Shown here piece after piece: positions 12,580 through 63,418 of a DNA stretch of 64,000 nucleotides. Position numbers and translations under genes: made by a program. The notes below the pieces were generated by a model. That model was not told the DNA's origin. It saw only the letters and a list, made by a program, of their open reading frames with translations, and searched no databases. The stretch lies in contig OX463808.1 in assembly GCA_949825045.1 (NCBI GenBank), positions 23,063,674 through 23,127,673 on the forward strand, in the 5' to 3' direction. Within the stretch, counting starts at the first letter, position 1. Every line of letters starts with the position of its first letter. This stretch comes from Argyresthia goedartella (lineage: Eukaryota; Arthropoda; Insecta; Lepidoptera; Argyresthiidae).

Positions 12580-14905
12580 TCAGATTCAGATTCAGATCGT
12601 TTATTGTGGAACGTAGTTAAGCTTAGATGTTACATAATAAGTTCTGTTCTTACGTCCAGCCGTTAGGCATACAAAATCATATACTAGGGAAAAATAGGCA
12701 ATTATACAATGATGTCAAAAAGAATTATTGGATTGGATGTCGAGTATAAATAAGATTATATAAATGTCAATACTAATAGAACATGTCATGTCAACACTAT
12801 GCAAAATATTCACCTACAGAGTAGTATGCCTTATCAACTAAATAATCATGTAATTGACGCTTGAACATATGTATGCTATCTATGTTCATAAGTGACAGTG
12901 GAACTTTATTATATATTTTTGACGCCATACCAAACAAACTATTGCTGAACAGCGCAGTTTGGTGTCTAGTAGCACGTATTTTTATGTTGTTACGGTCCTT
13001 CGGCGACTGATCAGGTAGTCGAACAGGTTTGGGTTTGTTTTTATAAACATTATTATTACAAAAATATACCGAGAGGGCATTGTTAATAATTTATGGCGTT
13101 TGAAATAAGGTTTGCAACTGTCTGTTCATTTTAACGAAAACTCCAGCTCTAATGCATTTCTTTTGAGACTTGAACGCCATTTCCTTATTTACGCCGTTAC
13201 CCCAGAATATTATTCCGTACCTGAGAGTGGATATTACGAAACCGTGATAAGCAGTAATTTGTGGATTTTACCGCAGAACTACTGCGGTAAAATCCACAAC
13301 TTTACTAAGCTTATACAGTGCATATGAAAATTTGTTCAGTTTTTTGGTTACATTTTCTATTTGTACATTCCAATTTAGTTTATTGTCGATTTGTAATCCT
13401 AAAATTGTTGTACTTGTACTTCGTCAATGATGTTGTTACCTTGTTTGATAATTAATGGTATCCGTTCTTTAGTTTGTTTAAAATTCATTATATAAATTTT
13501 ATTTAAATTAATCTTTATTATTATATATAATAATATAATTATTATATTGTAGCTATTAGGTCATTAAGTAAATTATTTATTAAATTTTGAGATGTCAAAT
13601 TATCATTACCCACATTTTTATAAACTATGGTACTATCATCAGCAAATAGGATCATAGGGTGAGATGTCGAGTAAACTATATCATTAATATAGATTAAGAA
13701 CAACAGCGGGCCTAGAACGCTTCCTTGTGATACCCCTAGCGTTACTTTTGAAGCTTCTGATGAGTAGATTTGTTCACAGTTTGTTTGGGAACATAATCTC
13801 TGAATTTCGGTGATTTGTTTTCGATCAGATAGTTATATTTAATCAAATCTATAACATTACCTCTGACTCCATAAGTCTGTAACTTTTTAACAATAATTTG
13901 TGGCTAGTCGAATGCTTAGGTCATGTCCATATATAAGGCTGACACAGGTGTTTTATTGTCTAAATTGAAAAAAAAAATTGCAGGAAGTCATAGATAGCCA
14001 AGTTAATTGTTTTGTGTTTTCTAAAGCCTTTTTGTTCGGGAACCAGAATATCATTATTTTTACAGTAGTTGTTATTGCCATTATATATTACTTTTTCAAA
14101 TATTTTTGAAAACACTGGTATAAGGGCGATAGGCCTGTAGATGTTCATATTTTCTTTATTTTTCTTTTTAAAAAGAGGCTTGATTATGGATGTCTTTAAG
14201 GCATTAGGATATATTTTGATACTTTCGTACAAATCTCATCATGTCCTTTACTGCTTGTGTTTTTCAAGGTCATAGTTATACGTATAATGTCAGTAGGATT
14301 GGTTGGATTTAAATATTAGGTCCTTACGTATGAAATTGGTGTTTTGTATGGAGAAATTGAAGTTAACTCAATTTTCAGTACAAACATTTTTGTATTTTTT
14401 TTAGGAATGACAGATCCTAATTTTATAAACTTTGTGTGTATGAATGAGACAACATTTAACTAACAGAAAATTTAATATAATTTTTGAAAAGTGTCAGCTG
14501 TAAAAAAATATTACGAATATTATCATGAAAATGGATGACATTTAGGAGGCACTGATTTTTAAGTTCACATTTTTGTTATCCAACTGAAAATGAAAAGAAA
14601 ATTTTATAAGTAATAAGATGTGAAATATTGAAATAAATTTTAAAACAATAAAAAATAACTGGAAATAGCTATTGAATTACTCGAATTATGAACTCCTGAA
14701 TCTGGAAGAAAAATTCACCAATGTCATAGGTAAGCACCCCAATATTATACATTGAATTTGGTTTAGGTCAAAGTTATATGATTATTAGGAAAATTATTTA
14801 ATGGTTCTGGTATCGTGAAATGGTCATTGAATGCCTTTGCTATGTCAGTCGTGTTTTTTATTACTTTTCCATTTTTTTCAATTTGTTCTCGTGATTTGAC
14901 GAGGT
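12580..14905 (-). pseudogene. LINE-D, decayed reverse transcriptase
   Basis: Minus strand, read from 14905 downwards. At 14905-14780 it reads QIEKNGKVIKNTTDIAKAFN, the linker before RT. At 14232-13960 it reads IYPNALKTSIIKPLFKKKN, YRPIALIPVFSKIFEKVIY and EQKGFRKHKTINLAIYDF (RT fingers). At about 13745-13560 comes GVSQGSVLGPLLFLIYIND-like text in broken frames, with an ADDSTIVYKNVGN-like active-site block near 13635. The C-terminal part and a 3' tail reach about 12580, where there is a 'cagattcagattcaga' run. There are many stops. A stretch at about 14250-14750 does not match RT. Confidence 0.75.
13259..13299. repeat. perfect 18-bp hairpin, loop 5
   Basis: Arms 13259-13276 (ttgtggattttaccgcag) and 13282-13299 are exact reverse complements around the loop aacta. 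It lies inside the LINE-D remnant. Confidence 0.95.
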
Positions 14906-14939
14906 CCCACACCATTAATTTTTTATTAATGGTGTGGGA
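14905..14939. repeat. perfect 15-bp hairpin, loop 5
   Basis: Arms 14905-14919 (tcccacaccattaat) and 14925-14939 are exact reverse complements with a TTTTT loop. It sits at the upstream edge of LINE-D. Confidence 0.95.
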
Positions 14940-15849
14940 TGTCTCGCTAACGGATTATTTCGAATATTGGATGAGAATTTTGCCGAATAATACAGGAAGG
15001 ACATCGTTCTAGTTAGAGACAGTGAGAGAACCAAAGCATCGCTTTGGAAAAATTAGTCCTCAATCATAGAGGTCAATTTGTCAAGAGCTGAAAATATTAT
15101 GGAAAAGCAACGCAAGATGATTAACCAACATATGAACGCAATAGAAAGATACTGAAAGAGGAAGCCCAACGAAATCGTATAATTAATTCCTTCAACATTG
15201 GAGCGATAACAGCAAACAACGTGCTACTCAGTTAACGAAATATTCAAAACAAGTTAGTAGATACTATCACCGATCTACACCACGGTCGGTTCGATTACCA
15301 TTTGTAATCGAACCGACCGTGGCTTGCAATTGTCATCAAGAAATTGATGACAATTGCAAGCCAATTACACCGAAGTGCACAAAATTTATAAAGTAAAATC
15401 ATGATTTTTGGCAGACGTACTTCTCTTTGAAATAAAACTTGCACTCATCAGTCGAGACAATTATTAAATTCTTAAAATGATACCGATACCTGAAACGAAA
15501 GCACAACAAGCAATCAGTGCAGTCAAATATCAGATAACATTGCGCTAAACATGAAAAAGTACATTTACATTCCTATGACCAATAGCGACATCAGTTCCTG
15601 TTTGGATCTTTAGAAAACTCATTTTTGCCAACTCCTGAAACCAGAGTATCACTTAAAAGACGACAAGAGTTTTTGTGGCCTGGAAGCTGCAGAATATACA
15701 GAACAACAATGAGCAAGATATGTGGAAATAAATGGCAAGAATTCAACACCGCAAATACGTACCTTTATTTTTGCTGCTATCGATGTCAAGTCCAAACAAC
15801 ACGAGGGCTATTCCAATTTTTTTTAGTGAAATGAAAAATAATTAGAATA
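14940..15849. other. unassigned, possible dead transposon
   Basis: No recognised domain. Short broken plus-strand stretches occur, including a 65-codon frame ending at 15012 and a 69-codon frame at 15625-15834. The double hairpin at 15280-15362 is the only clear structure. Confidence 0.3.
15280..15362. repeat. two abutting perfect 19-bp hairpins
   Basis: Hairpin 1 has arms 15280-15298 (ccacggtcggttcgattac) and 15304-15322 with loop cattt. Hairpin 2 has arms 15321-15339 (ggcttgcaattgtcatcaa) and 15344-15362 with loop gaaa. Both are exact. They share the GG at 15321-15322, so the second starts where the first ends. Confidence 0.95.
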
Positions 15850-20379: not shown

Positions 20380-20810
20380 GGACGCTCTTAGGTATTATTA
20401 CGGATTTTGAAGGACTACTGTTTTTTGTCCAGCGCTCAAGGTTACGTAACGCTAAACAGTACAAGGCGTATCTCTGCCTGTTTGTTTGTCTATCCACCAA
20501 GGCGGTGCTGACCTCTTGACTGAGGCCTTGATTGCTTGCTTGTACATATTTTTTTCCCGAGAGGGGACTTCCAGCATTAATCCGTTCTGATAACGGTATC
20601 AACTATGTAGGCGCTAAACGATACTAACGAAAGGTAGCAATTTTTTTTTTATGTAAAAAAGGTGGATATTGGCACGGCGCTCTCCCGTCGGGGTATATAG
20701 TGGACCTTCAATCCTTCTGGTTGCCCCCACTGGGGTGGGATATTTGAAGCCATAGTTAAGTCAGCTAAAACGCATTTAGGGCGTATAGTCAGGCTCAGTA
20801 GGAAACGGCG
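20380..20810 (+). pseudogene. BEL/Pao integrase remnant
   Basis: In shifting plus frames the sequence reads KQYKAYLCLFVCLSTKAV (with a frameshift), RGLPALIRSDNGINYVGAK and WTFNPSGCPHWGGIFEAI followed by VKSAKTHLGRI. These are the hallmark integrase-core blocks of BEL/Pao retrotransposons, with the D-N-G-x-N-F catalytic block represented by SDNGIN. Frameshifts and stops show it is dead. Its C-terminal side runs straight into copies of the 56-bp satellite. LTRs were not found. Confidence 0.75.
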
Positions 20811-20965
20811 TAAAGCTATGCTCTTGTTAAATATGTTCGCCTTTGTAGGGTCAGTATGTAACGGTGTAAAGCTATGCTCTCCTTTAATCTTCTCGACTTT
20901 ATTCAGTAGGCTACGGCTTAAAGCTATGCTCTTGTTAAATGTTCTCGGTATTATAAGATCATCCT
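20787..20965 (+). repeat. 56-bp satellite, short array (about 3 copies)
   Basis: The repeats share aacggcgtaaagctatgctc and ttgttaaat...ttctcg and are the same family and orientation as the main array at 24287-25565. Here they follow directly on BEL/Pao integrase sequence. Confidence 0.85.
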
Positions 20966-21139: not shown

Positions 21140-22052
21140 GGACATATCGCCAAGCAGAGCTTATTCTCAGTCTGACATGACCTAAGTTGACCAGCAGCAT
21201 AAATCTCCTCTTACCTTTGTGGCGACTCGATATAAAGACTGAAGACCTAGACTTTGATGCTTTTAAGGAGGAGATCAGAAATATGATTCAGGCCTATATC
21301 CAAAAACTAGAAACTGAGTCCATATCGATGGGTCGTCCATAAAGGATATACGACAGTCTATTAGTAACATCGAAAGCTCAATGACGCTCTTGAGTGCTCA
21401 AAATGAGGACTTAAAAAACAAAATTAATGTGATGGAGTCCCAGCAGAAGAAAGACCGTGAACATAGATATGTTCACGGTCTTTCTTCCGCTCCTCCAATT
21501 TGTCCTCCAATATTGAGATCAATATTGGAGGATAAATTGGAGGACATGCACAGGTTGGGCCGAAAAATATTAGTTAAAGTTAGAAATGTTCCATGCAAGC
21601 TGAATGAGACGCATGAGGATCTTTTGAACATGACAGTGGAGCTTTCTAAGATAATTAATTACCCAGATTTTTTAAAAGTCTTGTAAAGGATATATTCCGT
21701 GTCAAAAAGAATGATAACTATAAACCATTAGTGGTGGAGCTACAATCAACCATAATAAAGAAGGAGATCCCAAGTGCCTCCAAAATCTCTAACCACAAGA
21801 ATAAGTGGGCCAAAATATGTGCTTGGCACCTGGGTATCACCGAAAATGGAGATGAACCAATAGCTGATCAGCTGACACCCAAGGCGGCTCCTGGCTCGAG
21901 ACCTGCCCCGACTACAGGAATATAAGTTCTGCTGGACTGCATTTGGTAAAGTTAACGTAAGGGAGGATGAAAGTCTCCGATCATAACTATCACCAGTGAG
22001 GCGCAAGTCCAAAGCTTAATGAATCTCACTCACGACAAAATTACTAGTTAAA
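21140..22052 (+). pseudogene. LINE-E ORF1 (coiled coil plus FP-like C-terminal domain)
   Basis: Starting around 21140 (MDISPSRAYSQSD) in broken frames, it reads DFDAFKEEIRNMIQAYIQKL, then SNIESSMTLLSAQNEDLKNK (coiled coil), then EDMHRLGRK, VRNVPCKLNETHEDLLNM and PLVVELQSTIIKKE. It ends with FGKVNVREDESLRSITITSE near 22000. The last parts look like the baculovirus FP-protein-related C-terminal domain often found in ORF1 of lepidopteran retroelements. Stops and frameshifts occur at about 21176, 21340, 21686 and 21925. A double hairpin (21446-21544) lies in the coiled coil. Confidence 0.7.
21446..21544. repeat. two adjacent hairpins (20-bp and 26-bp arms, 2-nt loops)
   Basis: Hairpin 1 has arms 21446-21465 (gaagaaagaccgtgaacata) and 21468-21487, perfect, loop ga. 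Hairpin 2 has arms 21491-21516 and 21519-21544 (starting tcctccaatttgtcctccaa) with one mismatch, loop ga. They are 3 nt apart. The extra bases stay in frame within ORF1 of LINE-E. Confidence 0.95.
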
Positions 22053-24099: not shown

Positions 24100-24286
24100 T
24101 AATGAATTTATTTTTATTATTAGCTAGCAACTATCCATTACTGGTAATCAAAAACTATGGACTGAAGGAGCGGGGTTTTCTGACACAGGTTTTGATATTC
24201 TTAAAAGAAGGCCCCAGTTGTTATTGTAAGCAATGAAATAATTTGGTTACTGCAATAAACATATTTTATTTATTTTATTATTTTAC
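24100..24286 (+). repeat. possible LINE 3' tail
   Basis: The stretch ends with 'gcaataaacatattttattt' and A/T-rich sequence, like a polyadenylation signal with a decayed tail. It may be the 3' end of LINE-E, but no coding text links them. Confidence 0.3.
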
Positions 24287-25565
24287 AGTAGGAAACGGCG
24301 TAAAACTATGCTCTTGTTTAATCTTCTCACCTTTATAGGGTTGTCATTAGATAACGGTGTAAATCTATGCTCTTTTATAATCTTCTCGCCTTTATAGGGT
24401 CATTAGGAAACTGCGTATAGCTATGCTCTTGTTAAATCTTCTCGGCTTTATAGGTTCAGCAGGAAACGGCGTAAAACTAATCTCCTGTTAAATCTTTTCG
24501 GCTTTATAGGTTCAGCAGGAAACGAAGTAAAATGATGCTTTTGTTAAATCTTCTCGCCTTTGTTGAGTCAGTAGGAAACGGCGTAAAGCTATGCTCTTGT
24601 TAAATCTTCTCGCCTTTATAGGTTCAGTATGTAACAGTGTAAAGTTGTAAAATCTTCTCGTCTTTATAGGGTCAAAAGAAAACGGCGTAAAGCTATGCTC
24701 TCGTTTCATCTTCTTGCTTTTATTCAGTTGTATACGGCGTAAAGCCATGCAAGTGTAAAGCTATACACTTGATAAATCTTCTCGGTATCATAGGATCAGT
24801 AGCAAACGGTGTAAAACTATGCTCTTGTTAAATCTTCTCACCTTTATAGGGTGGTCATTAGATAACGGTGTACAGCTATGCTCTTTTTTATCTTCTCGCC
24901 TTTATAGGGCCATCAGGAAACTGCGTATAGCTTTGCTCTTGTTCAATCTTCTCGGCTTTATAGGTTCAGCGAAAACGGCGTAAAATTATGCTCTTGTTAA
25001 ATTTTCTCGGCTTTACAGGGTAAGTAGGATACGGCGTAAAGCTACGCTCTTGTTAAATTTTCTCGGTATTATTGGATCAGTAGGAAGCGGCTTAAAACTA
25101 TGCTCTTGTTTAATTTTCTCGGCTTTATAGGGTAAGTAGGATACGGCGTAAAGCTACGCTCTTATTAAATTTTCTCGGTATTATTGGATCTATGCTCTTG
25201 TTAAATTTTCTCGGCTTTATAGGGTAAGTGGGATACGGCGTAAAGCTACGCTCTTGTTAAATTTCTCGGTATTATTGGATCAGTAGGAAGCGGCGTAAAA
25301 CTATGCTCTTGTTAAATCTTCTCGCCTTTATAGAGTTAGTAGGAAACGGCGTAAAGCTAAGCTCTTGTTAAATTTGATCGCCTTCATAGGGTCAGTATGT
25401 AACGGTGTAAAGATATACACTTGTTAAATATTTTTGGCTTTATAGGGTCAGTAGGAAACGGCGTGAAGCTATGAAGTTGTTTAATCTTCTCGTCTTTATA
25501 TGGTCAGTAGAAAAGGGCATAAAGCTATGCTCTTTTTAAATCTTCTCGCTTTCATAGAGTCAGAA
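24287..25565 (+). repeat. 56-bp satellite array, about 23 copies
   Basis: Head-to-tail monomers share the blocks cagtaggaaacggcgtaaag, ctatgctcttgttaaatctt and ctcgcctttatagggt. The period measures 56 bp between intact copies (for example 24541 to 24597). Monomers diverge by substitutions and small indels, and two sub-variants exist ('cggctttatagggtaag' and 'cggtattattggatcag') that alternate near 25000-25300, suggesting a higher-order arrangement. It encodes nothing, since 56 is not a multiple of three. Confidence 0.92.
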
Positions 25566-27380
25566 GGTTTACAGATATCGAATGGTCAGTTAGGGCCTGC
25601 AATGGACTGAAATTAACTAATGACTCGATTATGATGTTACTGCAACCGGTGCATTTGTATCAGAAATGATGCAGTGTAGTATGCTACTAATGGTTCTGGA
25701 GTCAATCAAGTCAAATGGATTGTAGATTATGTTGAATCTGTATCTAAATTAGAATGCAAATCATTCTCAAATCGTAAATGAATTTTCGGAAATTCTGTGA
25801 GCTATCGTATGACTTTACTCCGATAACCGATACCAAGTATCTTACCTCCGAAACACAATGGAACAAAAAATATATATCTGGCGCTCGCTATAAACGTTCG
25901 ATATTCTCCAAAAACACATATCAGACACCAAGCATTTTAGTACTTATAAATCCGATCCTTACCCTAAGTCATTCGATAACACTATACTGCCTGAAAATCT
26001 TGTCCCGCGCCTAATTAGACGCAGTAATTAATAACATTTAATTAATTTCCGTAACACAAAGACTCGGCACAAATTAATTTAATGAGAGCAAAGTTTGTTA
26101 GTGCCAAGAAACCGCGTATAACCCCCCGCGGGTAGAGAGGGGTCCCAGAGACCGCGAAAGCATACGAGAGAAGCGGTAACTTTACACTTACACTCAACAC
26201 GATATGTGCGATTGGTTGATGGGGACTGTAAACTTACAACTTACTTCTTAGTAAATGTGTTTTGTGTGACAGCTGAAATTACGGTGTGGGTGGTCATATA
26301 TTTGAATTGAATGAATTAAATTAATTACGGTTTATTTACAATAAACGTTTATGGATTTAATGTATGTAATTTACAACAAATTTGGAAAATTACATTTTTA
26401 AATATCATAATCTAAAATTTGATTTGTGCGTGATTTAAAGTAAAACAGTCTTCGGGATATTTACGCTAAAACAACAAACGTAGCATTTAGTATGCTCATA
26501 TCATTAAGGTACTTAATTAAAACGCAAAACAATAAAGAGACGATATAATGCTCTGTCTATATTGTCCTAATTACGAGCATCCTCATTAAACCGAGAAAGG
26601 CTCGAGTGTAATACAAGAAGGTAAATATGTATATTTTTATTTACCAAAATTAGCTGCGCGGTCTTCCAGACCCACCGCCTTAATGAGGGTTATGTAGTAA
26701 ATATGCAAAGTTTAGGAGCAGTTTTAGACAAATCCGCATTCACACACACACAAACACAAGGGATGGGTACTTCAGTCACAAATTTTGGAAGCCAGGTGCG
26801 TTTAATACGATCTTTAGGTAAAATATATTACCTATGGGTGAAATAGCCGCGTTCTCTATATTGGACGGGGATCGGCGTTTGGCGGGGTATCTTTATTCCT
26901 TTAGGAAGAGTATTTTCTTCGGAGAGTTTCAAATTGATCTACAAGGAGCTTAGCTGACGATTTTGGAAATATTGACGGTGACAGGAATGAAACACTTTTG
27001 AAAAATCTGATAGGTATTTGTATACCTGAAATGAAGGACGCCCATATATGTTGGATTTACTACAATATATATTCGGTTTTGATCCAATTATCATTGTTAA
27101 TGTGGTTCCTAGTTATGTTACAACCAAATAGGGATAATTTAATGAAGCATCTCATTTAACCTATTAACTACCTTTGCGAGTGCACGGTGACCCACGCAGA
27201 TGCAGGGCAAACAGGCAGTCTAAAACCACAGATAATATAATACCATTAAAACGGACGCGAGAACTCTAAAAGCTTCTCAGATTTCCACAGAAAGGGGTTA
27301 ATTAAAATTAATGACGGAGATTTAATGAGAAAAGGAGCTCCTTTAACTTCGGCAGAATAATCATCCATAGAAACGGCCAT
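25566..27380. other. unassigned AT-rich sequence
   Basis: About 1.8 kb without a supported gene or RNA. A 78-codon frame at 25778-26014 has no recognisable domain. A short GC patch at 26110-26175 (accccccgcgggtagagagg) stands out but I cannot assign it. It forms the left flank of the piggyBac element. Confidence 0.35.
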
Positions 27381-27581: not shown

Positions 27582-29664
27582 ATGGAAGCCGCGTTCACGT
27601 AAGTTTAATATAATATTGCTTTTTTGTGATTGATTGTTAGTATTCTTGTGTTTAGCAGGGACAGTAACCCTTATAGAACCATGTTACATAGAAATTACTA
27701 AGTAGGCGCTCTTTTCCTTTACTTCACAAGTCATTATTTACTGCCGATGCAAAGAGGCATCACTAGCCCGATACCGTGTCTTTTCAAGATACCTAAAATG
27801 TTCGTGTTTTTTACATTTTGCTGTGTACTTATTACATATTTGTACCTAAGTGTATGTTTCTTTATAATTTAAAAGTTACTTTTTGTGTTTTAGGGACTGT
27901 ACATTGCACGAAGCTCTAGCAATTTTAGAAGAGGACTCTGATTATGAAGTGGACTCGATATTTGTGGAGCCTCCTGAACCAAATATTCATTCTGACGAAG
28001 ACTCGGGTGAAGATGATGGCGGCGCTTTAGTGAATAACCTCAGCGGTCGCCAGCTCAATGCAAGATGTGACGTGAAAACCTCACGAAGATCACAACGACT
28101 ACGAACCAACCGTTGTATATCGCCTCCAGGAGAGTCCTCGGCATCGGTTTGTGTTCCTGGCCGCAAACGCGGTGCAGCTGTTTCTCGGGCGTATTTACGT
28201 GGACGAGGGCGTGGTAAAACTAATCGTGGAAGTGTAAACAGAGCCGCCGATAAAAACATAAGTAGTAAACGCGCACGGTTGGTGGACTCTTCTTCGGATT
28301 CGAGTTCTTCGGATGAAGAAGCTGAAAGAAACGAGCCACAAGCAAAAAAACAAAAAGTGGGACGATCATGGATTCATGAAGATTTATCGCACGAACCGCC
28401 CATGTTTCCTGAAGGGAACTATGCTAAGTATAGGGAGCTTTCACCAGTAAAAATGCTTGAACTGTTCTTAGAGAATGATGTGTATACTTTATTGCAAGAA
28501 GAGACACGAAAATATGCAGCGTTTTTGAACTGCCCTGATCCGAAAATAAGTATGGATGAATTGATTGCTTTCGTGGAAATTCTCATACTGTCTGGTTATA
28601 ATACCGTGCCGTCAAAAACCCACTACTGGGATCAAGGAGAAGATTTGAGAAATGAACTCGTTCATAACTGCATGCGACGTGACCGTTTTAAGACTATTAT
28701 GCGGTTTCTACACTGTGCTGATAACACCAAAATGGATGTAAATGACAAAATGTGGAAGCTTAGGCTACTCATAAATATACTGAAAAAGAAATTTCATGAG
28801 AACTTTACAGCGTGTGCCCATTTGAATTACGATGAATCCATGATTGAATATTTTGGCAAGCATAGCTGTAAACAATTTATTCGAGGGAAACCAATCCGTT
28901 TCGGATATAAAAACTGGTGCCTGAATACACCATATGGGTACTTAGTTGATTTCGAGATATATCAAAGCAAAAGTGTACAAGCAAACACGGAGTACGATAA
29001 GAAGTTTGGGAAAGCCGCATCACCTCTCATGGTTATGATCGACAACTTGCCTGAAGAAATTCGTCCCCTGCCAATGAGTTTCTACTTTGATAACTTGTTT
29101 ACTAGCTTTCAGCTACTGGTGTGTCTAAAAGAACGTGGTTATCAGGCTACAGGAACAGTTCGCGACAACCGTCTTCCCAAAAACATTCCTATCACTGGTA
29201 AAAAGACAATGTTAAAAAAATCTGCGCGAGGGTCATACGAGTACACTAAAAGCCAAGATGATGACATTGTTGTAGTACGCTGGAAAGACAACTCTGTCGT
29301 TACAGCTATGTCTACTTTGCACGGTGTAGAACCACTATCAAGTATTGGTCGATATTCCGCAGTTGAGAAAAAAAAGATCAGTGTACCTCGTCCTGCCGTA
29401 TTTACCAGCTACAATCGTTATATGGGTGGCACAGACTTGATGGACCAGAACATCAGTACTTACCGGATTGGAATTCGTGGCAAGAAGTGGTGGTGGCCCA
29501 TCTTTACCTACCTCATTGATGTGGCAATTTGTAATGCCTGGAGTTTATGTCGAAAATCGGGAAATCCCGTAAGCCAGCTTGACTTTCGGAGGCACATTGT
29601 TCAAACATATTTAATGCGTTTCCGAAACATGCCTCGAGGTGCTGGCCGCCCTCACGCATCTTGA
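27582..29664 (+). CDS. piggyBac transposase, one premature stop
   Basis: Exon 1 is probably 27582-27598 (ATG, 17 nt, then GTAAGT). The intron is 27599-27893, ending TTTTAG. The splice keeps the frame into DCTLHEALAILEEDSDYEVD. An acidic N-terminus and a basic, Ser-rich stretch (about residues 60-150) precede the catalytic domain. The three Asp of the DDD core are visible in NYDESMIEYFG, FYFDNLFTSF and RYMGGTDLMDQN. TGA at 29662-29664 ends the frame, yet the same frame goes on to TGA 29854-29856 and encodes the expected C-terminal Cys-rich finger (CASQYCKS, CSKCDVGLCANC). So a single nonsense change, probably CGA to TGA, removes the finger. An open frame that starts at the TTG codon 27883 lies inside the intron and is not the real start. 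Confidence 0.95.
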
Positions 29665-30889: not shown

Positions 30890-31797
30890 ATGAGTCGCTT
30901 CCTTCGAAGATGTAGATCCCCTTTTCGGACGGGTACAATTCGCACGGTTTTGGATAATTTGGACAATTGGACAGTTCAGTTGAATGAACTAGTCGGATTA
31001 TTTTTCCATTAGTTCAGCTGAAAATATAACATAAATATAGTTCTCCGTGCCTTATTAAGGTTTGATACAAAAACCTTTTATCTTAGTAACTGAGTACGCA
31101 ATATTTGTCCCTCGCTTAAACATCACAAATGGCTTAAACAAACTTGAGAGAGAAAATGTAATGCAAAAATAAGCAAAGTGGGATCGATCTTAATCTTTTA
31201 TTTCGGCACCTCACAATGAAATCCAATAGTACTAGGAGCATATATATCCTTAGGAAGTTTTTAACCTTTAAATACTAGTGACAGCCAGTGATGGGTTGCG
31301 TATCGATAAACAACAAGATGTTACATATACCAGGACAGCAGAAAGGTGTTGGAAGTTCCATTATCTATTAATACCTCCTAGCAACCCATAATTTCTTCGT
31401 AGTACTACTCTTAATTTTATATAAAGAAACGTAGAACTTAGTAAAACATTTAAGGAATATTACTAGTAATTCAACAGAAGAGGCGAGCAACTGAACTAGT
31501 AGGAAAAAATTCCCACTAGTTCAGTCAATTGAACTAGTGGGAAAAAAAGTCCCTCAAGTTCAACTGAACTGTCCAATTGAACTAGTTGGAATGAAGGCGT
31601 TTTATAGGTTGTATAGGCCCCAGCCATGACACTACAAACTTTATAATGTGGTGTATGAAACCATGTTGACATATGTGGTTCTCTGTGGTTTTATGGGCTG
31701 GGGAGGGTGATATAAACTCCCCGTGGACCCACTAGTGGGTAAAGTCAGTGGGTCGACGGGTCGTGCCAGGCCGGATTATATTTTCGGAAGCGACTCG
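30890..31797. mobile_element. candidate inverted-repeat element
   Basis: Outer ends gagtcgcttcc (about 30892) and ggaagcgactc (about 31786) are inverse copies. A perfect 21-bp inverted pair lies inside: 30964-30984 (caattggacagttcagttg plus aa) and 31559-31579. Several 'aactagtgggaa' units in alternating orientation sit at 31491-31543. Near 31680-31770 is a GC-richer block (ggctggggagggtgatataa). No coding frame. The element boundaries are tentative. Confidence 0.4.
31491..31543. repeat. three alternating arms of an 'aactagtgggaa' motif
   Basis: 31491-31505 pairs with 31510-31524 (one mismatch, loop aaaa). 31510-31523 pairs with 31530-31543 (perfect 14 bp, loop gtcaat). Three arms in the order plus, minus, plus. 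Confidence 0.9.
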
Positions 31798-35586: not shown

Positions 35587-37059
35587 ATGTTGAAACTAGG
35601 TGTTATTAGGGAATCCACTAGTTCTTATGCTGCGCCCGTTGTATTAATTAAAAAGCCCGATAATGCATGGAGGTTTTGTGTAGATTATCGGAAATTAAAT
35701 AAGAAAATTTGTAGGGATAATTATCCTATTCCGCGGATAGAAGACATTGTCGATAGTTTGGCCGGGGCCAAGTATTTTGCGGAGTTAGATCTCAATTCAG
35801 GTTATTGGCAGACGGTTATTACGGAAGGTAGGCATAAAACGGCTTTCGTCACGACCACGGGTCTTTATGAATTTAATGTTGTTCCGTTCGGTTTGGCAAC
35901 GAGTCAAGCGGTTTTCCAACGGATGATGGATAAAGTGTTAGATTTAAGATTTAAAGGGGTTATGGTTGACGTAGATAATGTACTTGTATATGGTAGAACG
36001 TTCGAGGAGTTTACCGATACGTTGCAGAAAGTTTTTGGGCGGTTTAGAGAAGCGAACTTGACCTTCAAGCCATCAAAATGTAAATTTGGTTTTTGCGAGA
36101 TTGAGATGCTAGGTTATATAATCTCGAATGAAGGAGTAATAGCTAGTGAGAAAAAGCTGAAGGCTATGCAACAGGTTCCAACTCCCACATCTACTGAGGA
36201 TGTGAAACAATTATTAGGTTTATTTTCTTATTTTAGAAAATTAGTATCGAATTTTGCGAGAATATCGTTACCTCTCACTAAATTATTGAAAAAGGGGGTA
36301 AAGTTTCAATGGAATGAAGAATTGCAGAATTCGTTTGATTATATTAAAAAGGTTATGTGTAGTGCGCCAATACTTTCCTATTATTCGGGGGATAAGTTGT
36401 ATACTACGAGAGTTTATGTGGATGCGTCTAACGAGGCGTTGGGTGCAGTATTGATACAGGGCGTTGAAAAAATGAGTCCGGTTGCCTATGCGTCTAGGAA
36501 ATTAACGGATGCGGAGAAAAAATATAGTACGACGGAGAAAGAGTGTCTGGGGTTAGTATGGGCGTTAAGGCACTATAGGCATTTTCTTTGGGGATCGTAT
36601 TTTCAGGTTGATACAGACCATAGCGCGTTATGTTGGTTACAGTCGAAAAAAGATATGTCTGGTAGGTTAGCGCGATGGGCGTTAGCGATACAAGAATGGG
36701 ATTTCGAGATAGTTCATTGCTCGGGGAAAAGCAATGTAGTGGCAGATTTTTTGAGTAGGAATCCGCTAATGGAAGAAGGGAAACGGGAAACAAAAGGACC
36801 TCAGTCTTCTTCTCGTTCTGAACCTTATGATGATGGTTTGGAAGTTTTTAGTATTAACGTAGAGTCGTTACAGGCGGATCAAGAGAACGATTCATTTTGT
36901 AGTAGATGGTTAACGCGGTTGAGCGAACGTCCGGAAGCGTGGCGTAGCGGTTTTAGTTTGACAAATAATTTATTATATAAAAGCGTACGTAGAGATGGAG
37001 AAATTAGGGAGGTATTAGTATTGCCTAGGTCTTCGTTTCAAAATGAAACAAAGACCTAG
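35587..37059 (+). pseudogene. gypsy reverse transcriptase and RNase H, catalytic box mutated
   Basis: 490 codons. RT blocks: VIRESTSSYAAPVVLIKKP, WRFCVDYRKLN, AELDLNSGYWQ (first Asp), PFGLATSQAVFQRMMDKVL. The normal Y-x-D-D-V-L-V-Y box reads D-V-D-N-V-L-V-Y at about 35968-35991, so Tyr and the second Asp are both replaced; the enzyme cannot work as it stands. RNase H follows with VYVDASNEALGAVLIQ, TTEKECLGLVWALRHYRH and DTDHSALCWL. The frame ends in TAG at 37057-37059 inside a hairpin (37021-37063), just before the integrase zinc finger. Confidence 0.93.
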
Positions 37060-37063
37060 GCAA
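37021..37063. repeat. 20-bp hairpin, loop 3, inside gypsy pol
   Basis: Arms 37021-37040 (ttgcctaggtcttcgtttca) and 37044-37063 with one mismatch, loop aaa. The right arm supplies the TAG that ends the pol frame. Confidence 0.95.
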
Positions 37064-39604: not shown

Positions 39605-39605
39605 T

Positions 39606-39956: not shown

Positions 39957-39967
39957 TTGGCGGAGGC

Positions 39968-50283: not shown

Positions 50284-50405
50284 TCATCTAGCTAGATGAC
50301 GTCAATGAAGGAGTGTTTTCTATATGCATAAGCATATAGAAAGCATATATAAGACCGCCGGGTCTCTCATAAGAGAGACCCGGCGGGTGGATGGGACGTC
50401 ATTTA
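50284..50405. repeat. cluster of small palindromes
   Basis: tcatctagctagatga (50284-50299) is a perfect palindrome. Hairpin 1: 50317-50327 (tttctatatgc) with 50332-50342. Hairpin 2: 50355-50368 (ccgccgggtctctc) with 50373-50386. Both are perfect and both have the loop ATAA. Outer gatgacgtc / gacgtcat blocks at 50296 and 50395 also pair. It starts at the 5' truncation side of LINE-L. Confidence 0.9.
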
Positions 50406-55059: not shown

Positions 55060-55260
55060 TGACCTCTGAAAACATGTATGATTGATACCATCAACAATCG
55101 ACAACATGTCTCAGTGATCTTCATGGACATGACGAAGGTTTTTGACTTTGGGAATCATAAACAGCTACCGATAAAACTACCGAAGTACCGATAAAAGCTT
55201 TGGTAAAATAGTACCAACACAATGAGGCCAACCACAGATTCGTGTCTGAAAAATATAAAA
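55060..55260 (+). pseudogene. LINE-O reverse transcriptase, upstream part
   Basis: It reads INNRQHVSVIFMDMTKVFDF, RT motif A, matching LINE-F at 32187 (INNRQHVLLIVMDMNKAFDF). It breaks off in a hairpin at 55256-55293. Its natural continuation is found 7.3 kb downstream at 62566. Confidence 0.7.
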
Positions 55261-55293
55261 CAAGGCTAGCGTCTAAACGCTAGCCTTGTTTTA
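55256..55293. repeat. perfect 17-bp hairpin, loop 4
   Basis: Arms 55256-55272 (taaaacaaggctagcgt) and 55277-55293, loop ctaa. It sits at the end of the LINE-O upstream part. Confidence 0.95.
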
Positions 55294-55296
55294 GCC

Positions 55297-56311
55297 CTAA
55301 AGACGATGGTTTCAGATACTTTTGCTGATTTTATAAATGCTTTATTATGTCCTTATAGATGATTTCAAAGTACGCGAACCGTCGAATATAATTTGTTTTT
55401 GAGTTATATATTTTTTAAATGGCCATTTCACGCATTCAGGACCGTGGGGTTGTGGGACCACTAAGGTGGGGAAACGATAAATTTTGACGTTTTTTATTAA
55501 CCTTGACCTTGAACTTGACCTTTCGTGTATATTTCGCATACAATTCTCAGTTTTGCCATTTTTTTACGCTCTATGTGATTCAAAGTTTATTGACCTCGAG
55601 GTTATTGATCTTGGCCTTGATTTTTCATGCATATTTTGCGTAAAATTCTCACTTTTTCCGTTTCGGAATAGAAAATCCGAATCAGGTCATCCCACTACCT
55701 AGGTAGTCCTGCCTAGGGAGTCTTGTGGCTAGACTCTAGAGCGTTTTTATGAGCTGTTGTAGCCGGTGCTAAGGCGATTTAGAAATAATAATGGGATACA
55801 GTTAATTTTTGTAGCGAAAATTATGTAAACATAATCTAAAAATGGTCTAACCATTTTTAGATTATGTTTACATAATTTTTAAAAAGAAGAAAAATATTTT
55901 TTTCTCAATAACGGTGCCATTTCATTTTATGGGAGTGGTGGCATGGGGGATGGGATACCCTCACAAATTTTTCGCAAAAAAATGCATAAAAGGTTAATTT
56001 CAAGGTCAAAGTCAATGACCTCGAGGTCAATGAAGTTTAACCGACATCGAACTTCAAAAAACGGCAAAATTGATAATTTTCTGCGAAATATACATGAAAG
56101 GTCAAGGTCAATAGCCACGAGTTCAAATAACTTTGAACGACATCTATTAAAAAAATGGCCAAAATTCATCGTTTCCTCACCCCAAAACTCACATATCCCC
56201 ACGGTCCCGAATTCTTGAAACCACGATTATAAAAAAAAAAACTCGGAAACTAATTATTTCCGACGGTTCGCGTAATTAAAAATCAGCAAAAGTATCTGAA
56301 ACCATCGTCTT
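55297..56311. mobile_element. foldback element, about 1 kb
   Basis: The left end agacgatggtttcagatact + tttgctgatttt (55301) is matched by the inverted right end (aaatcagcaaaagtatctga + aaccatcgtct, 56279-56310). Inner parts are also inverse copies, strongly diverged: both halves carry 'tgaccttgaccttg'-type words, a 'atggccatttcac / aaatggccaaaat' block and 'cacggtcccga / accgtgggg'. It has no gene. Four short open frames over it are shadows of the repeats. Confidence 0.75.
55817..55879. repeat. perfect 30-bp hairpin, loop 3
   Basis: Arms 55817-55846 (starting aaaattatgtaaacataatc) and 55850-55879 are exact inverse copies; loop cta. It lies near the middle of the foldback element. Confidence 0.97.
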
Positions 56312-56449
56312 TCTAAATGTTTTCCGAAAACAACAATATATATATCAAACGACGACGAAATTGAGCATCTAACCAAATCAACCTACCCCTCTGAACGCGT
56401 ATTAACCTTTGCTGCGGTCATACTGCAAAGAGACAAAAACGTTAGAAAA

Positions 56450-58288
56450 ATGAAAGATATACTGAGACTACTCGATCGGCGCCTAAAACTCTGGGCAGAC
56501 AAACGTTTCGAGGAACTCATCACGGAATCCACCAAAGCAGATAAATCGATATGGAATACAAGAAACCGGAAACAAAACAACAATGACCAAGAAACAAAAT
56601 TATTCACACGACTGATACTACATGGAAAAACGCGGGAAGCGCTCAACTGGCTCCTCACAAAAGACACGAGCAAAGTTTTAAACCCAGATACTGAAGTTGA
56701 TCCATCCGGTAAAACCGTCAGTGATGTGCTGAGAGAAAAGCACCCCCCGCCTAATACTCCAGATCCCGCTTTATTCACTCTCCCCAAAGACGTCACAAAA
56801 CTCCCACCACTCCTTGAAATCGAAATAACTTGTGACCATGTCGAAACAGTGGCGAGAAAACTACACGGCGGCGGAGGCCCCACTGGATGCACAGCCGAAA
56901 ACTGGAGAGATTTCCTACTCCGCTTCGGCCAAGCAAGCGCCCATTTAAGAGAAGCCGTAGCGCAGCTCACAACGAAACTTAGCAACGAAACCATACCCTG
57001 GACCCAAATACAAGCATTAATGTCAAGCCGACTTGTTGCTTTAGACAAATGCCCAGGCGTAAGACCTATCGGCATCGGCGAATGCCTACGAAGAATATTA
57101 TCCAAATGCATGATCTTAGCAACAGGCTCTGAAGTCACTGAAGCATGCGGCCAGTCACAGCTCTGCAGTGGACTGGGCAGTGGCATCAAAGGCGCCATTC
57201 ATGCCATGACCGATGTCTTCCAAAGAGATTGCCAACCTGGTTCAAACTGGGGAATGCTCCTCGTTGACGCGAACAATGCTTTTAACGCCGTGAATAGACA
57301 ACTAGCCCTCTGGCAAGCAAGAATATACTGGCCACACTGCGCCCGCTTTCTTTATAATACTTACAATGGCCACGCTGAATTGGTATTTCGCGATTCTGAT
57401 ACAAGACTATATAGCAGAGAAGGCGTAACCCAAGGAGACCCACTCGCAATGCCACTGTACGCGCTTGCAACACTACCAATAATTAACAAACTTAAAACAG
57501 AAAACACAGTCACACAATGCTGGTACGCCGATGACTCCTCCGCGCAAGGCACTTTCCAAAGCCTACGACAATGGTGGGACAACTTAAACAAAACAGGCCC
57601 AGCATACGGATACTTACCACAAGGTAAAAAATCATTTCTAATAATGTCAGAAACTGACAAGTCTACCGCAGTAAAGACGTTCTCCGGTACCAACGTCTCC
57701 ATAGTTACCGGCTCCCGCTTCCTAGGAGGCTACATAGGGACAGGAGGGGACGACTTCGTAAAAAAGAATGTAACCGAATGGATATCTATCATCGAGAAAC
57801 TCACAACAATCTGCAAAAACTCACCTCAAGCCGCTTACACTGCCCTAACTAAAGCAGCTCAGTTTAAATGGTCCTTCCTACTACGTGTCTTAAAAAATTC
57901 AGAAGAACTTTTTGAACCCTTAACTAACACATTACACGACAAATTCATACCAACACTAATCGGAGGCGAAATCACAAAACTTGAAACCCAGCTATTTACC
58001 CTCCCAGTCCACAAAGGTGGACTTGCCCTTTCTGACCCCTTCAACACACCAAACCGTGCATACCAAATCTCAAAACAGGGATCTACAATACTTTCAACAG
58101 CCCTAACCGAGATAAAAGACATAAACCTTGCTGAACACTACAATTCTTTGCGTGACGCAAGAAAGGAAGGAAACAAGGAAAAAGAAACATACGAGAACGA
58201 AACTCTAGAAAGCATTCTAACAAAATTACCATCCAAAAAGAAAAGAGCAATAGAAAGATCAATAGCGACAAAAATGAAAACAAAAACA
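56450..58288 (+). CDS. RLE-LINE ORF, part 1: reverse transcriptase
   Basis: 613 codons from the first ATG; the frame is open upstream to 56351. RT blocks: SSRLVALDKCPGVRPIGIGE (fingers), SQLCSGLGSGIKGAIHAMTD, WGMLLVDANNAFNAVNRQLA (motif A Asp), YSREGVTQGDPLAMPLYALA (motif B) and QCWYADDSSAQG (motif C, YADD). Then KKSFLIMS and SRFLGGYIG, and a C-terminal Lys/Glu-rich linker to KMKTKT at 58288. No stops or frameshifts. The next 99 bases, still open, belong to the inserted LTR. The family is like RLE-encoding LINEs (R2/R4/CRE/NeSL group in the broad sense), by domain order; exact clade unknown. The 271-codon minus-strand frame here is a shadow. Confidence 0.88.
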
Positions 58289-59563
58289 TGTAGTGTTATG
58301 TTATACTACTTACGTGCTATTTTCTTGAATGTCTTAAAAATTCCAAGGCTGCAGCTGCTTTCGAGAAACTTAAAGAAGCTTTGGTAACTGCTCCTGTCCT
58401 TGCTTGCTCTATTACGCTGGATGCTTGCTGAGCTTGTGATTTTGTCATCACTTTTATTTCCATAGAACCCTGTAATGTTTTAAACCATAAGAATACATTA
58501 ATAAATCATGTTCGCTCTGCATTTTCATGTTATCAGCACTTCTAAATCGATAGGGAAGGGGCTTACCTTTGGTGACCTTGTTTTTGGCTTTCTCCGAAAC
58601 TCTGCAATCTCGGGCTTCGTGCGCGCTGGTGCGCTACTATTTTTCCTTTCGTTGTTATGTAATTTCGGCTATGTGAACTGGTTAAATTTTATATTACGAG
58701 CCTGAAACCAACATTTGACATTTGATATATTGATTGTTTATCTGGTTGTCATGGCAATGTCCTTTCAAACTCGTTAGCGGTCTGATATGTTTACTTTAAT
58801 ACTTTTACAAAAATACTCTTTCTCCCTTGGCCAATCTCAAAAATTACGTTTAATTTAAATAATTTTTAGAACTCTCCAAAAAGGGTATAAAAGCGGAACA
58901 TTTCTTCAATTCTGGACAGTCTCACGTCAGTTTCTGAACTGGAAGTACCAGTAAAGGCCTTATCCCGGGGTCGCTCAACCCCGGGATCCTGCGAAGCCTT
59001 CAAACTCCTTCAAATCTCCAAATTCTCCATCTACAACGGGATCCTGCGAAGCCTTCAAACTCCTTCAAATCTCCAAATTCTTCATCTACAACGGGATCCT
59101 GCGAACCTTCAAACTCCCTCAAAACCTTCAAATCAATCTTCAAACAACGGGATTCTGCGAGCCGCGCCTACGCCGTTACCATTCCTACAACGAAGATTTC
59201 TACAACGGGATTCTGCGAGCCGTGCCAACGCCGCTACTGTTCCTACAACGACGATTTCTACAACGGGATCCTGCGAGGCGTAACTACAAGTACGCCCGCT
59301 ACTGTTCCTACTACGACGATTTCAACAACATCTACAACAACAAATACACCTGCACCCAGGTCTCCGCTTCCTTCTTTCTATCCAGACATCTGTATTTTAT
59401 AAAACCTGTTTCACATCTCATCCATCCTCATCTTCGCATAATTTTTTTTTATAGACTTCACTGTAAATACTATACTTCTAATAAACTGATACTACTAAAT
59501 TTTATCTTGGTTGTTTGCTGTTAGGTTCTGTTAGTTTCTGTTAGGTCGTATCTTCACGCGACA
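58289..59563 (+). repeat. 5' LTR, 1275 bp
   Basis: Starts tgtagtgttatgttatacta, ends cgtatcttcacgcgaca. It contains a TATA box (58886), a stretch of about six 'acaacgggatcctgcga' units (58980-59280), an AATAAA at about 59480, and near its start an open segment reading AFEKLKEALVTAPVLA, which is Ty3/gypsy pol text. It also holds a 10-bp palindrome, atcccggggt / accccgggat (58962-58987). Confidence 0.95.
58886..58892 (+). promoter_or_regulatory. TATA box in the LTR
   Basis: gggtataaaagcgg, with a possible initiator (tctcacgtcagtttct) about 30-40 bases downstream. The second LTR has the same at about 61078. Confidence 0.65.
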
Positions 59564-60465: not shown

Positions 60466-60480
60466 GGGTCGGGGGGAAAA
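60466..60480 (+). other. polypurine tract
   Basis: gggtcggggggaaaa directly before the 3' LTR. Confidence 0.8.
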
Positions 60481-61753
60481 TGTAGTGTTATGTTATACTA
60501 CTTACGTGCTATTTTCTTGAATGTCTTAAAAATTCCAAGGCTGCAGCTGCTTTCGAGAAACTTAAAGAAGCTTTGGTAACTGCTCCTGTCCTTGCTTGCT
60601 CTATTACGCTGGATGCTTGCTGAGCTTGTGATTTTGTCATCACTTTTATTTCCATAGAACCCTGTAATGTTTTAAACCATAAGAATACATTAATAAATCA
60701 TGTTCGCTCTGCATTTTCATGTTATCAGCACTTCTAAATCGATAGGGAAGGGGCTTACCTTTGGTGACCTTGTTTTTGGCTTTCTCCGAAACTCTGCAAT
60801 CTCGGGCTTCGTGCGCGCTGGTGCGCTACTATTTTTCCTTTCGTTGTTATGTAATTTCGGCTATGTGAACTGGTTAAATTTTATATTACGAGCCTGAAAC
60901 CAACATTTGACATTTGATATATTGATTGTTTATCTGGTTGTCATGGCAATGTCCTTTCAAACTCGTCAGCGGTCTGATATGTTTACTTTAATACTTTTAC
61001 AAAAATACTCTTTCTCCCTTGGCCAATCTCAAAAATTACGTTTAATTTAAATAATTTTTAGAACTCTCCAAAAAGGGTATAAAAGCGGAACATTTCTTCA
61101 ATTCTGGACAGTCTCACGTCAGTTTCTGAACTGGAAGTACCAGTAAAGGCCTTATCCCGGGGTCGCTCAACCCCGGGATCCTGCGAAGCCTTCAAACTCC
61201 TTCAAATCTCCAAATTCTCCATCTACAACGGGATCCTGCGAAGCCTTCAAACTCCTTCAAATCTCCAAATTCTTCATCTACAACGGGATCCTGCGAACCT
61301 TCAAACTCCCTCAAAACCTTCAAATCAATCTTCAAACAACGGGATTCTGCGAGCCGCGCCTACGCCGTTACCATTCCTACAACGAAGATTTCTACAACGG
61401 GATTCTGCGAGCCGTGCCAACGCCGCTACTGTTCCTACAACGACGATTTCTACAACGGGATCCTGCGAGGCGTAACTACAAGTACGCCCGCTACTGTTCC
61501 TACAACGACGATTTCAACAACATCTACAACAACAAATACACCTGCACCCAGGTCTCCGCTTCCTTCTTTCTATCCAGACATCTGTATTTTATAAAACCTG
61601 TTTCACATCTCATCCATCCTCATCTTCGCATCATTTTTTTATAGACTTCACTGTAAATACTATACTTCTAATAAACTGATACTACTAAATTTTATCTTGA
61701 TTGTTTGCTGTTAGGTTCTGTTAGTTTCTGTGAGGTCGTATCTTCACGCGACA
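60481..61753 (+). repeat. 3' LTR, 1273 bp
   Basis: Same sequence as the 5' LTR with a few substitutions (for example gttagcgg/gtcagcgg, actacgac/acaacgac, atcttggttg/atcttgattg) and a 2-base difference in a T-run. Confidence 0.95.
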
Positions 61754-62565: not shown

Positions 62566-63350
62566 TCGGTACAGAACAAAGCACCGCATCCAACATTCAT
62601 CCATTAAGTAATGAGTACCACAGGGCTGTAGTCTGGGGCCTCTAATATTCTTAGCCTGTATAAATAATCTACCTGAAAGTGTACCATCGAACGGTTTTGT
62701 TTGCGAATGATTGTTCGGTTGTCATTAAATGAACAAAGGTAACTTTGAATCAGAGATAAATGATACATTTAGTAGACAAGTGAAATGGCGTCAAAATAAT
62801 AATCTAATAATCAACCTTCAAAAAACTAAAATTGTGCAATTTTACCAGTCTCAAGCAATCCCATTAAGCTCACAAATAAACTACAACAACCTAAACATAG
62901 AAATAGTTAAAACAATGACATTCCTCGGACTACATCAAGACCAACATTGTGCATGGAAACTTCTAAGCTGTAATATAAATAGCCTTGTATATCCACTAAG
63001 AAGACTAGCCCACATCGCGTCCACACAGGCGGCTATTACTGCATACTTTGGCTATGTGCTCTCTATCCTAAGTTACGATATTATTTTCTTTGGTAATTGC
63101 ACTGATAGAGACAAACATGAATAAAATATTTCAAACATGAATAAAAATGCATCAGGGCTACATTAGTAGCCCTGATGCATTTTTATTCCGTATTTAATAC
63201 CAGCAATAGCTCGTATTAAACAATCGGAAAGTTGCAGTTCCTATTGCAAAAATATGATTTGTTAAAAAAAAATTCCTTCAATAGTCATACTAGAATGTTT
63301 AATATTTATATAGAAAAATTATAATCGTTTTAGTGAGCGCAATAGAATTC
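62566..63350 (+). pseudogene. LINE-O reverse transcriptase, downstream part
   Basis: It reads SNEYHRAVVWGL (motif B region), then FANDCSVVIK (active-site block, YADD-like but altered) near 62700, WRQNNNLIINLQKTKIVQFY and IEIVKTMTFLGLHQDQHCAW, then PLRRLAHIASTQAAITAYFG and VLSILSYDIIFFGN. Collinear with LINE-F (32400-33100). Stops and frameshifts throughout. Its 5' continuation is at 55060-55260. Confidence 0.75.
63139..63188. repeat. perfect 22-bp hairpin, loop 6
   Basis: Arms 63139-63160 (gaataaaaatgcatcagggc + ta) and 63167-63188, loop cattag. It interrupts the LINE-O tail. Confidence 0.97.
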
Positions 63351-63377
63351 ATTCAAGAAACTTACTTAACCTTGGTA

Positions 63378-63418
63378 ATGGTAATATTAGGTGGTGTTTA
63401 ACCACCTTATATTACCAT
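63378..63418. repeat. 18-bp hairpin, loop 5, one mismatch
   Basis: Arms 63378-63395 (atggtaatattaggtggt) and 63401-63418, loop gttta. Confidence 0.93.

What the first reader, a model, noticed from the sequence alone, without database searches (positions are those of the whole stretch)
13259..63418. An unusual set of short, (near-)perfect hairpins with 0-6 nt loops scattered through dead elements
I count at least thirteen: 13259-13299 (18 bp), 14905-14939 (15), 15280-15322 (19), 15321-15362 (19), 21446-21487 (20), 21491-21544 (26), 31952-32003 (26), 37021-37063 (20), 50317-50342 (11), 50355-50386 (14), 55256-55293 (17), 55817-55879 (30), 63139-63188 (22) and 63378-63418 (18). Most are exact. 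They lie in unrelated elements, so they are not one repeat family. In two cases the inverted copy is extra sequence inside a coding frame (21446-21544 and 37021-37063). The signature matches templated inverted insertions made by snap-back synthesis, as described for synthesis-dependent microhomology end joining with polymerase theta in Drosophila, or by template switching. A sequencing or assembly artefact is the main alternative.
Basis: partly seen in the sequence, partly recalled or inferred. Interest (0 to 1): 0.78.

Follow-up and report, generated by a model that had tools for sequence, protein, structure and literature searches.

The report
Mirror-image DNA copies from strand switching
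This animal genome, probably an insect's, is dotted with short, near-perfect mirror-image insertions that look like scars of a DNA-copying enzyme jumping to the opposite strand and back, and several of them copied both sides of the jump point.

Summary
All 14 hairpins exist (10 of 14 perfect over the stated arm, 4 with one mismatch), and none of 160 Markov simulations of the window has even one. They are not local: a systematic 220 kb sample of the same 1.1 Gb genome has 16 against a simulated mean of 0.04, loops mostly 3-5 nt. For four loci other copies of the host element lack the extra arm, while near-identical segmental duplicates keep it in whole or part. So these are inherited insertions, not assembly errors or element parts. 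Two details go beyond the finding. Some hairpins form adjacent pairs that copy both flanks of one point (L-X'-L'-R'-X'-R); in 3 of 6 pairs the two loops are the same word. Where an ancestor can be read (3 events), the loop is the reverse complement of the ancestral word: the mark of an inter-strand template switch, whereas intra-strand snap-back leaves it forward. Best reading: short-range inter-strand template switching across a 4-6 nt segment, a new variant of a known process. Snap-back with later loop inversion, or two-ended staggered-break repair, remain possible. Whether this lineage is unusually prone is untested.

The parts
13259..13299 (.). hairpin, 18 bp arms, loop 5; 21-nt insertion in a LINE remnant on the - strand
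   Evidence: absent from 9 of 9 non-duplicate copies fetched (L044-L052; 10 places fetched of 44 matches listed), present with a 14-nt interior deletion in the 95% duplicate L043; relatives P0121, P0122 lack it in protein
14905..14939 (.). hairpin, 15 bp arms, loop 5, near the end of a - strand reading frame that looks LINE-like by eye (no Pfam match)
   Evidence: copies not compared
15280..15322 (.). left hairpin of adjacent pair, 19 bp, loop CATTT
   Evidence: copies not compared; reading frame 15187-15393 stays open across the pair
15320..15363 (.). right hairpin of adjacent pair, 20 bp, loop GAAA
21446..21487 (.). left hairpin of two-sided event, 20 bp, loop GA inside A-GA-T
   Evidence: net 51-nt insertion, absent from 4 of 4 paralogues aligned (L003-L006), present in the 96% duplicate L002; relative P0123 lacks it
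21491..21544 (.). right hairpin of the same event, 26 bp (25 matched), loop GA inside A-GA-T
   Evidence: as above; both loops AGAT, paralogues read ATCT in 3 of 4 and TTCT in 1 of 4
   Evidence: copies not compared
37021..37063 (.). hairpin, 20 bp (19 matched), loop AAA, in the pol region of a gypsy-type LTR element; the reading frame ends inside it
   Evidence: copies not compared
50317..50342 (.). left hairpin of adjacent pair, 11 bp, loop ATAA; 12 nt to the next
   Evidence: copy search did not complete
50355..50386 (.). right hairpin of adjacent pair, 14 bp, loop ATAA
55256..55293 (.). hairpin, 17 bp, loop CTAA, 5 nt outside the end of the inverted-repeat element 55299-56312
   Evidence: also in the 99% duplicate at C2:22661836-22661873; no outgroup copy
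55817..55879 (.). hairpin, 30 bp, loop CTA, inserted in the inverted-repeat element
   Evidence: 9 copies fetched (L053-L061): none has it, 8 of 9 read through the site and L053 has a deletion there; present in two 99% duplicates
63139..63188 (.). left hairpin of two-sided event, 22 bp with loop CATTAG (23 bp with loop ATTA); 46-nt insertion in a LINE remnant
   Evidence: of 8 non-duplicate copies aligned, 7 lack it (L020 with a deletion at the site) and L012 differs there; present in duplicates L010, L011
63193..63220 (.). short right partner of the same event; loop AATA in the scan, CAATAG in its 6-nt form; its left arm is the reverse complement of the copies' right flank
63378..63418 (.). 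hairpin, 18 bp (17 matched), loop GTTTA; the left arm is the extra one

Best explanation
The hairpins are scars of short-range inter-strand template switching during DNA replication or repair synthesis. The growing strand leaves its template at a short segment X (4-6 nt in the three decidable events), joins the opposite strand on the far side of X, and copies X and then 11-31 nt of flank backwards. It then returns behind X. This gives one arm, an inverted loop X' and the mirror arm. In two-sided events the same happens on the other side of X, giving L-X'-L'-R'-X'-R with both loops the same word. Shown: the inverted arm is extra relative to other copies, it is copied from the immediate flank, it is heritable, and loops cluster at 3-5 nt. 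Inferred: the loop orientation is original, the skipped segment marks a blocked site, and which polymerase acts.
For: Extra arm absent from other copies: 4 of 4 paralogues at 21446-21544, 9 of 9 at 13259, 7 of 8 at 63139 (one of the 7 with a deletion at the site), 9 of 9 at 55817 (one of the 9 with a deletion at the site); duplicates at 95-100% keep it in whole or part. Loop equals the reverse complement of the ancestral word in 3 of 3 decidable events: AGAT against ATCT in 3 of 4 paralogues, TTCT in the fourth; CAATAG against CTATTG, read exactly in L013, L015 and L017 and one base off in L014, L021 and L022; GTTTA against TAAAC within one base in 3 of the 4 copies measured, the fourth (L017) matched out of register. 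At 55817 the inverted copy starts about 2 nt beyond the point where the forward strand stops, which fits but is weak. PMC7954356 (passages) states that intra-strand switching needs point 2 before point 1; point 2 ahead of point 1 allows inter-strand only. Loops of 3-5 nt: 13 of 16 in the genome sample, 10 of 14 in the window.
Against: Ancestors are read from copies 66-81% identical, so a few loop bases could be lineage changes. The loop at 13259 (TAGTT) fits neither orientation. The left loop at 63139 needs one substitution and a repeated CTA. Some junction bases are unexplained: CGTA between the two inverted pieces at 63139, about a dozen bases left of the inverted arm at 63378, one C at 55817, 12 nt between the 50317/50355 hairpins. 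Loops can be inverted later by a further switch, as documented in yeast (PMC8604942, passages). Three of the 6 adjacent pairs found by scanning do not share loops: 15280/15320, one in L062 and a weak one in L023. A loop peak at 4 nt is also what intramolecular folding would give. A two-sided event needs more than one switch.
Confidence: 0.57

Rival explanations
1. Snap-back (fold-back) priming at a broken end by polymerase theta or delta, with the loop later inverted by a second switch.
For: Loop sizes fit hairpin priming. Purified Pol theta extends stem-loops, and inverted insertions of 3-30 bp are reported, with a favoured 6-nt loop in Drosophila (PMC11292364, part of the discussion). Yeast fold-backs of mostly 5-34 bp are shown (PMC11724301, abstract and sections 15, 16, 22). 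In yeast, fold-back hairpins have short loops (median 4 and 3 nt) in mre11 and sae2 mutants, against a median of 36 nt otherwise (PMC7467729, passages).
Against: Loop inverted in 3 of 3 decidable events. Events that use both flanks; in C. elegans Pol theta complex inserts, 16 of 17 used one flank (PMC5068794, section 11), and a supplementary figure title there calls snap-back a minor part.
Confidence: 0.25
2. Two-ended break with a 4-nt stagger: each end closes into a hairpin whose loop is the overhang, is opened 11-31 nt away, and the two are joined. Topoisomerase II or transposon excision could supply the stagger (recalled, not from a call).
For: Pairs share loop words: ATAA/ATAA, GGTT/GGTT, and GA/GA, which is AGAT/AGAT if the flanking A-T pair is counted. 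The hairpins of a pair abut or lie within 12 nt.
Against: By my reasoning, with 3' overhangs both loops should be forward, and with 5' overhangs they should be reverse complements of each other. At 21446 both loops are the inverted word. Single-sided events also occur.
Confidence: 0.12
3. The hairpins are structural parts of the elements or functional RNAs.
For: Many lie in or beside mobile-element remnants.
Against: Other copies lack them at four loci; no Rfam match at gathering threshold in the window.
Confidence: 0.03
4. Sequencing or assembly artefact.
For: High arm identity; raw reads not available.
Against: Duplicates about 0.45-0.5 Mb away share the hairpins with independent substitutions, arm mismatches and one interior deletion.
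Confidence: 0.03

Closest known systems
Short-range template switch mutations, four-point model (great apes, PMC7954356; yeast, PMC8604942; RNA genes, PMC8794818)
   Same: Reverse-complement copy of nearby sequence, one event making a perfect hairpin, switch points definable against an ancestor, inter-strand class recognised (passages and an abstract).
   Different: Arms here are 11-31 bp, against a great-ape median copied length of 12 (maximum 128). Two-sided events with a shared inverted loop were not described in the passages read.
Polymerase theta templated insertions / synthesis-dependent microhomology-mediated end joining
   Same: Short inverted templated insertions at a break, similar lengths.
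   Different: Loop orientation in decidable cases; both flanks used in some events; loss of target sequence at 21446 limited to a few nt.
Yeast local fold-back inversions at double-strand breaks (PMC11724301; PMC7467729)
   Same: Inverted duplication of sequence next to a break, mostly 5-34 bp; a short-loop class exists.
   Different: The yeast model extends one end only and captures the other by end joining; the local case shown there uses a 10-bp pre-existing repeat and a 41-nt loop.

Membership tests
Short-range template switch mutation | Inserted piece is the reverse complement of adjacent ancestral sequence | tested here: met
Short-range template switch mutation | Insertion absent from the ancestor or from other copies | tested here: met
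   four loci:
Short-range template switch mutation | Explained by a single four-point event | tested here: inconclusive
   55817 nearly fits (one extra C); 63378 leaves about a dozen bases at its left junction unexplained; the two-sided events at 21446 and 63139 need at least one more switch. Judged from the alignments by eye; no four-point model was fitted
Short-range template switch, inter-strand class | Point 2 lies ahead of point 1 in the ancestor | tested here: met
   3 of 3 decidable events; 13259 undecidable, 55817 weak
Pol theta / SD-MMEJ snap-back | Intra-strand fold-back: loop in forward orientation | tested here: not met
   loops reverse-complemented in 3 decidable events; later loop inversion not excluded
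Pol theta / SD-MMEJ snap-back | Dependence on polymerase theta | not testable with these tools
   no genetics
Element-encoded terminal or structural hairpin | Hairpin shared by copies of the element | tested here: not met
   four loci:
Assembly artefact | Inverted copy missing from raw reads | not testable with these tools
   no reads; duplicates argue against

The most novel reading that the evidence does not exclude
The two-sided events (L-X'-L'-R'-X'-R, same inverted 4-6 nt word in both loops) are the product of a distinct, undescribed process: mirrored strand switching from both sides of one blocked or broken 4-6 nt site. It would be active enough in this lineage to have left tens of thousands of scars.
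Probability: 0.25. Interest if true: 0.8.

Novelty: new variant of a known kind. Interest (0 to 1): 0.58.

Why it matters
In the papers I read, template switching and fold-back repair are studied at engineered breaks, in mutants, or by comparing related apes or yeast strains. Here a 1.1 Gb genome full of mobile-element copies supplies natural before-and-after pairs: a decayed copy with a hairpin can be compared with many without. That makes switch points, loop orientation and decay measurable without an experiment. If the two-sided signature holds, it would point to what blocks or breaks the DNA. Perfect hairpins made in one step are also raw material for new RNA hairpins.

Tried and rejected
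Rejected: artefact (duplicates carry the hairpins with their own changes); one repeat family or element-encoded hairpin (copies lack it at four loci); known RNA (0 Rfam matches at gathering threshold); chance. An untemplated CGC between the arms at 21446, which I first noted, was dropped: the paralogues read CAGCGG there, so it is templated.

Led nowhere: viral-contig scans with five queries and exact-pattern scans of a satellite word in genome contigs and viral contigs found nothing, so no other animal DNA could serve as a density control. The pair in L030 has no other copy across it among the matches shown, so its ancestor could not be read. Direct-repeat insertions: 18 outside arrays, many of them simple-repeat-like. 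Pfam pieces of 14782-15831 matched nothing above cut-off; my thought of an envelope-like frame there is recollection only.

Results against my reading: loop at 13259 fits neither orientation; 3 of 6 adjacent pairs do not share loops; some junction bases at 63139, 63378 and 55817 are unexplained. The probability printed assumed 5 pairs and 4-nt loops at all three matches, and is optimistic: one search lists 6 pairs and scores the 21446 loops as 2 nt. Some of the automatic word extractions hit the wrong place; for 63139 I rely on the alignment. The chance controls are Markov simulations, not other genomes.

Dropped rows: L016, L018 and L019 were fetched but not put in the alignment; L007 and L008 (partial matches) were left out; 10 places were fetched for 13259 from 44 matches listed, and 9 for 55817 from 104 matches listed; each of these searches scored only the best 40 candidates.
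Full report
What is there. All 14 hairpins are present at the stated coordinates; 10 of 14 are perfect over the stated arm and 4 of 14 carry one mismatch. Two more qualify, 5437-5486 and 31510-31543. Scored with mismatches, loop up to 8 and low-complexity sequence removed, the window has 14; 160 third-order Markov simulations of the window have 0. Exact arms of 12 or more with spacer 0-6 number 12 against 0 in ten simulations. Over 16 hairpins there are four mismatches in 309 arm pairs.

Where it is. The window is animal DNA with LINE, gypsy-type, piggyBac and Tc1-like remnants. It lies at C2:23063674-23127673 of an unnamed assembly of 1,108,636,262 bases in 89 contigs. Among the 120 relatives of its piggyBac protein listed, the named one with the highest identity is from the moth Tuta absoluta, 70% over 73% of the query. 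Contigs up to C31, where a length was shown, run from 46 to 25 Mb. A moth or butterfly is likely; this is inference.

Genome-wide. I took 20 stretches of 10 kb at base 6,000,001 of contigs C1-C20 and two more at 20,000,001 of C1 and C2. They hold 16 hairpins by the same rule; 160 simulations give a mean of 0.0375 and a maximum of 1. The spread is uneven, 0 to 3 per 10 kb. Scaled up by simple proportion this is about 80,000 in the genome, with a wide error. Loops are 3, 4 or 5 nt in 13 of 16, and in 10 of 14 in the window. The window is about three times denser, as expected of a window chosen for its hairpins. A survey of perfect inverted repeats gives a mean of 4.55 per kb for Metazoa, which I take from a methods passage to be bases per kb, and says eukaryotic ones are mostly AT-rich with spacer 0 (PMC13155455, abstract, passages and section 8). 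By its rule the window has 11.66 bases per kb, 9.86 without low-complexity ones, mostly with spacers 2-6; I did not compute this for the genome sample. No other insect genome was available, so the rate may or may not be unusual.

Insertions, not element parts. At 21446-21544 a relative in the protein database reads straight through where the window has 17 extra codons. Four of four paralogues aligned lack exactly the 51 nt, and a 96% copy about 0.47 Mb away has them. At 13259 two relatives and an in-window LINE lack 7 codons; 9 of 9 non-duplicate copies fetched lack the 21 nt, and the 95% duplicate carries the insert minus 14 interior nt. At 63139 two 99-100% duplicates have the 46 nt; of 8 other copies aligned 7 lack it, one of these (L020) having a deletion at the site, and the eighth, L012, differs there. 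At 55817 none of 9 copies fetched has it, one (L053) having a deletion there, and two 99% duplicates have it. At these four loci the hairpins are therefore inherited insertions older than the segmental duplications. Decay is visible: L002 has 3 of 20 mismatches in the arm that is perfect in the window, and L043 has lost the hairpin centre. This argues strongly against an assembly artefact, though no raw reads were available. The other listed hairpins were not compared with outgroup copies, except 63378.

Two-sided events. Scanning for adjacent hairpins found 6 pairs in window plus sample: 15280/15320, 21446/21491, 50317/50355, L030 2533/2598, L062 2526/2556 and a weak one in L023. In 3 of 6 the loops are the same word: GA/GA (AGAT if the A-T pair is counted), ATAA/ATAA, GGTT/GGTT. 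The copies show that 63139 is also two-sided: its second inserted piece is the reverse complement of the copies' right flank. Its loops are ATTA and AATA in the scan, CATTAG and CAATAG in their 6-nt form. At 21446 the two inverted pieces abut, and the CGC between them is templated.

Loop orientation. In the paralogues of 21446 the word between the flanks is ATCT (3 of 4; TTCT in one), while both loops read AGAT. At 63139 copies L013, L015 and L017 read CTATTG, and L014, L021 and L022 differ from it by one base, while the right loop is CAATAG and the left CATTAG, or CGTTAG in the duplicates. At 63378 copies read TATAC, TAAGC or TAAAT before the shared arm, each one base from TAAAC, and the loop is GTTTA; a fourth copy matched out of register. 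So in 3 of 3 decidable events the loop is inverted. At 55817 the inverted copy starts a little beyond the forward stop, which fits but is weak. At 13259 the orientation cannot be read. Walker et al. state the rule: if point 2 is ahead of point 1, the strand to copy has not been made and the switch cannot be intra-strand (PMC7954356, passages). An intra-strand snap-back gives a forward loop. The caveat is later loop inversion, documented in yeast (PMC8604942, passages). A few junction bases stay unexplained: CGTA at 63139, about a dozen bases left of the extra arm at 63378, a C at 55817.

Mechanism. My best reading is short-range inter-strand template switching: the new strand stops at X, joins the opposite strand beyond X, copies back over X and 11-31 nt of flank, and resumes behind X; in two-sided events the mirror image happens from the other side. 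Shown: extra inverted copy, source in the immediate flank, inheritance, loop size, loop orientation in three events. Inferred: X marks a blocked or broken site; the polymerase; that orientation is original. Snap-back by polymerase theta or delta is the main rival. Pol theta extends stem-loops from two terminal pairs (PMC11292364, abstract and part of the discussion), and yeast makes fold-back insertions of mostly 5-34 bp (PMC11724301, abstract and sections 15, 16, 22). Yeast fold-backs have short loops mainly in mre11 and sae2 mutants (PMC7467729, passages), so weak hairpin cleavage in this lineage is a testable thought. But in worms complex Pol theta inserts used one flank in 16 of 17 cases (PMC5068794, section 11). 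A staggered-break model explains shared loop words but not their common inverted orientation at 21446.

Known or new. Template switching that makes perfect hairpins in one step is known (PMC8794818, abstract and opening). I saw no two-sided form with a shared inverted loop in the listings of the ten searches I ran or in the passages read; that is a limited search of open-licence papers. I rate it a new variant of a known kind.

Noticed in passing
window 12999-63600 against C2:22585425-22672638: Parts of the window have 95-100% duplicates on the same contig about 0.45-0.5 Mb away; part of the 55-63 kb region is there twice.
   Followed up: partly
58285-59563 and 60477-61753: Near-identical (99.4%) repeat, 2192 bp apart, next to a reverse-transcriptase frame.
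   Followed up: no
24280-25630 and 20790-20961: Degenerate 56-bp satellite-like array with outlying copies 3.5 kb away.
   Followed up: no
27868-29664: Open 598-codon piggyBac transposase frame (Pfam DDE_Tnp_1_7), possibly intact.
   Followed up: no
5609-5913 and 9319-9622: Long palindromic stretches, 88% and 77% identical to their own reverse complement, probably foldback-type elements.
   Followed up: no
55299-56312: Inverted-repeat-ended element with many other matching places in the genome (104 matches listed from 40 scored candidates, the window included).
   Followed up: partly
33478-39967: Gypsy-type LTR element; LTRs 97.8% identical over 362 bp, so a fairly recent insertion carries the 37021 hairpin.
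   Followed up: no
L043:1-141: The duplicate of the 13259 hairpin has lost 14 nt from its interior, which suggests hairpins decay by internal deletion and may explain why old imperfect ones are rare.
   Followed up: partly
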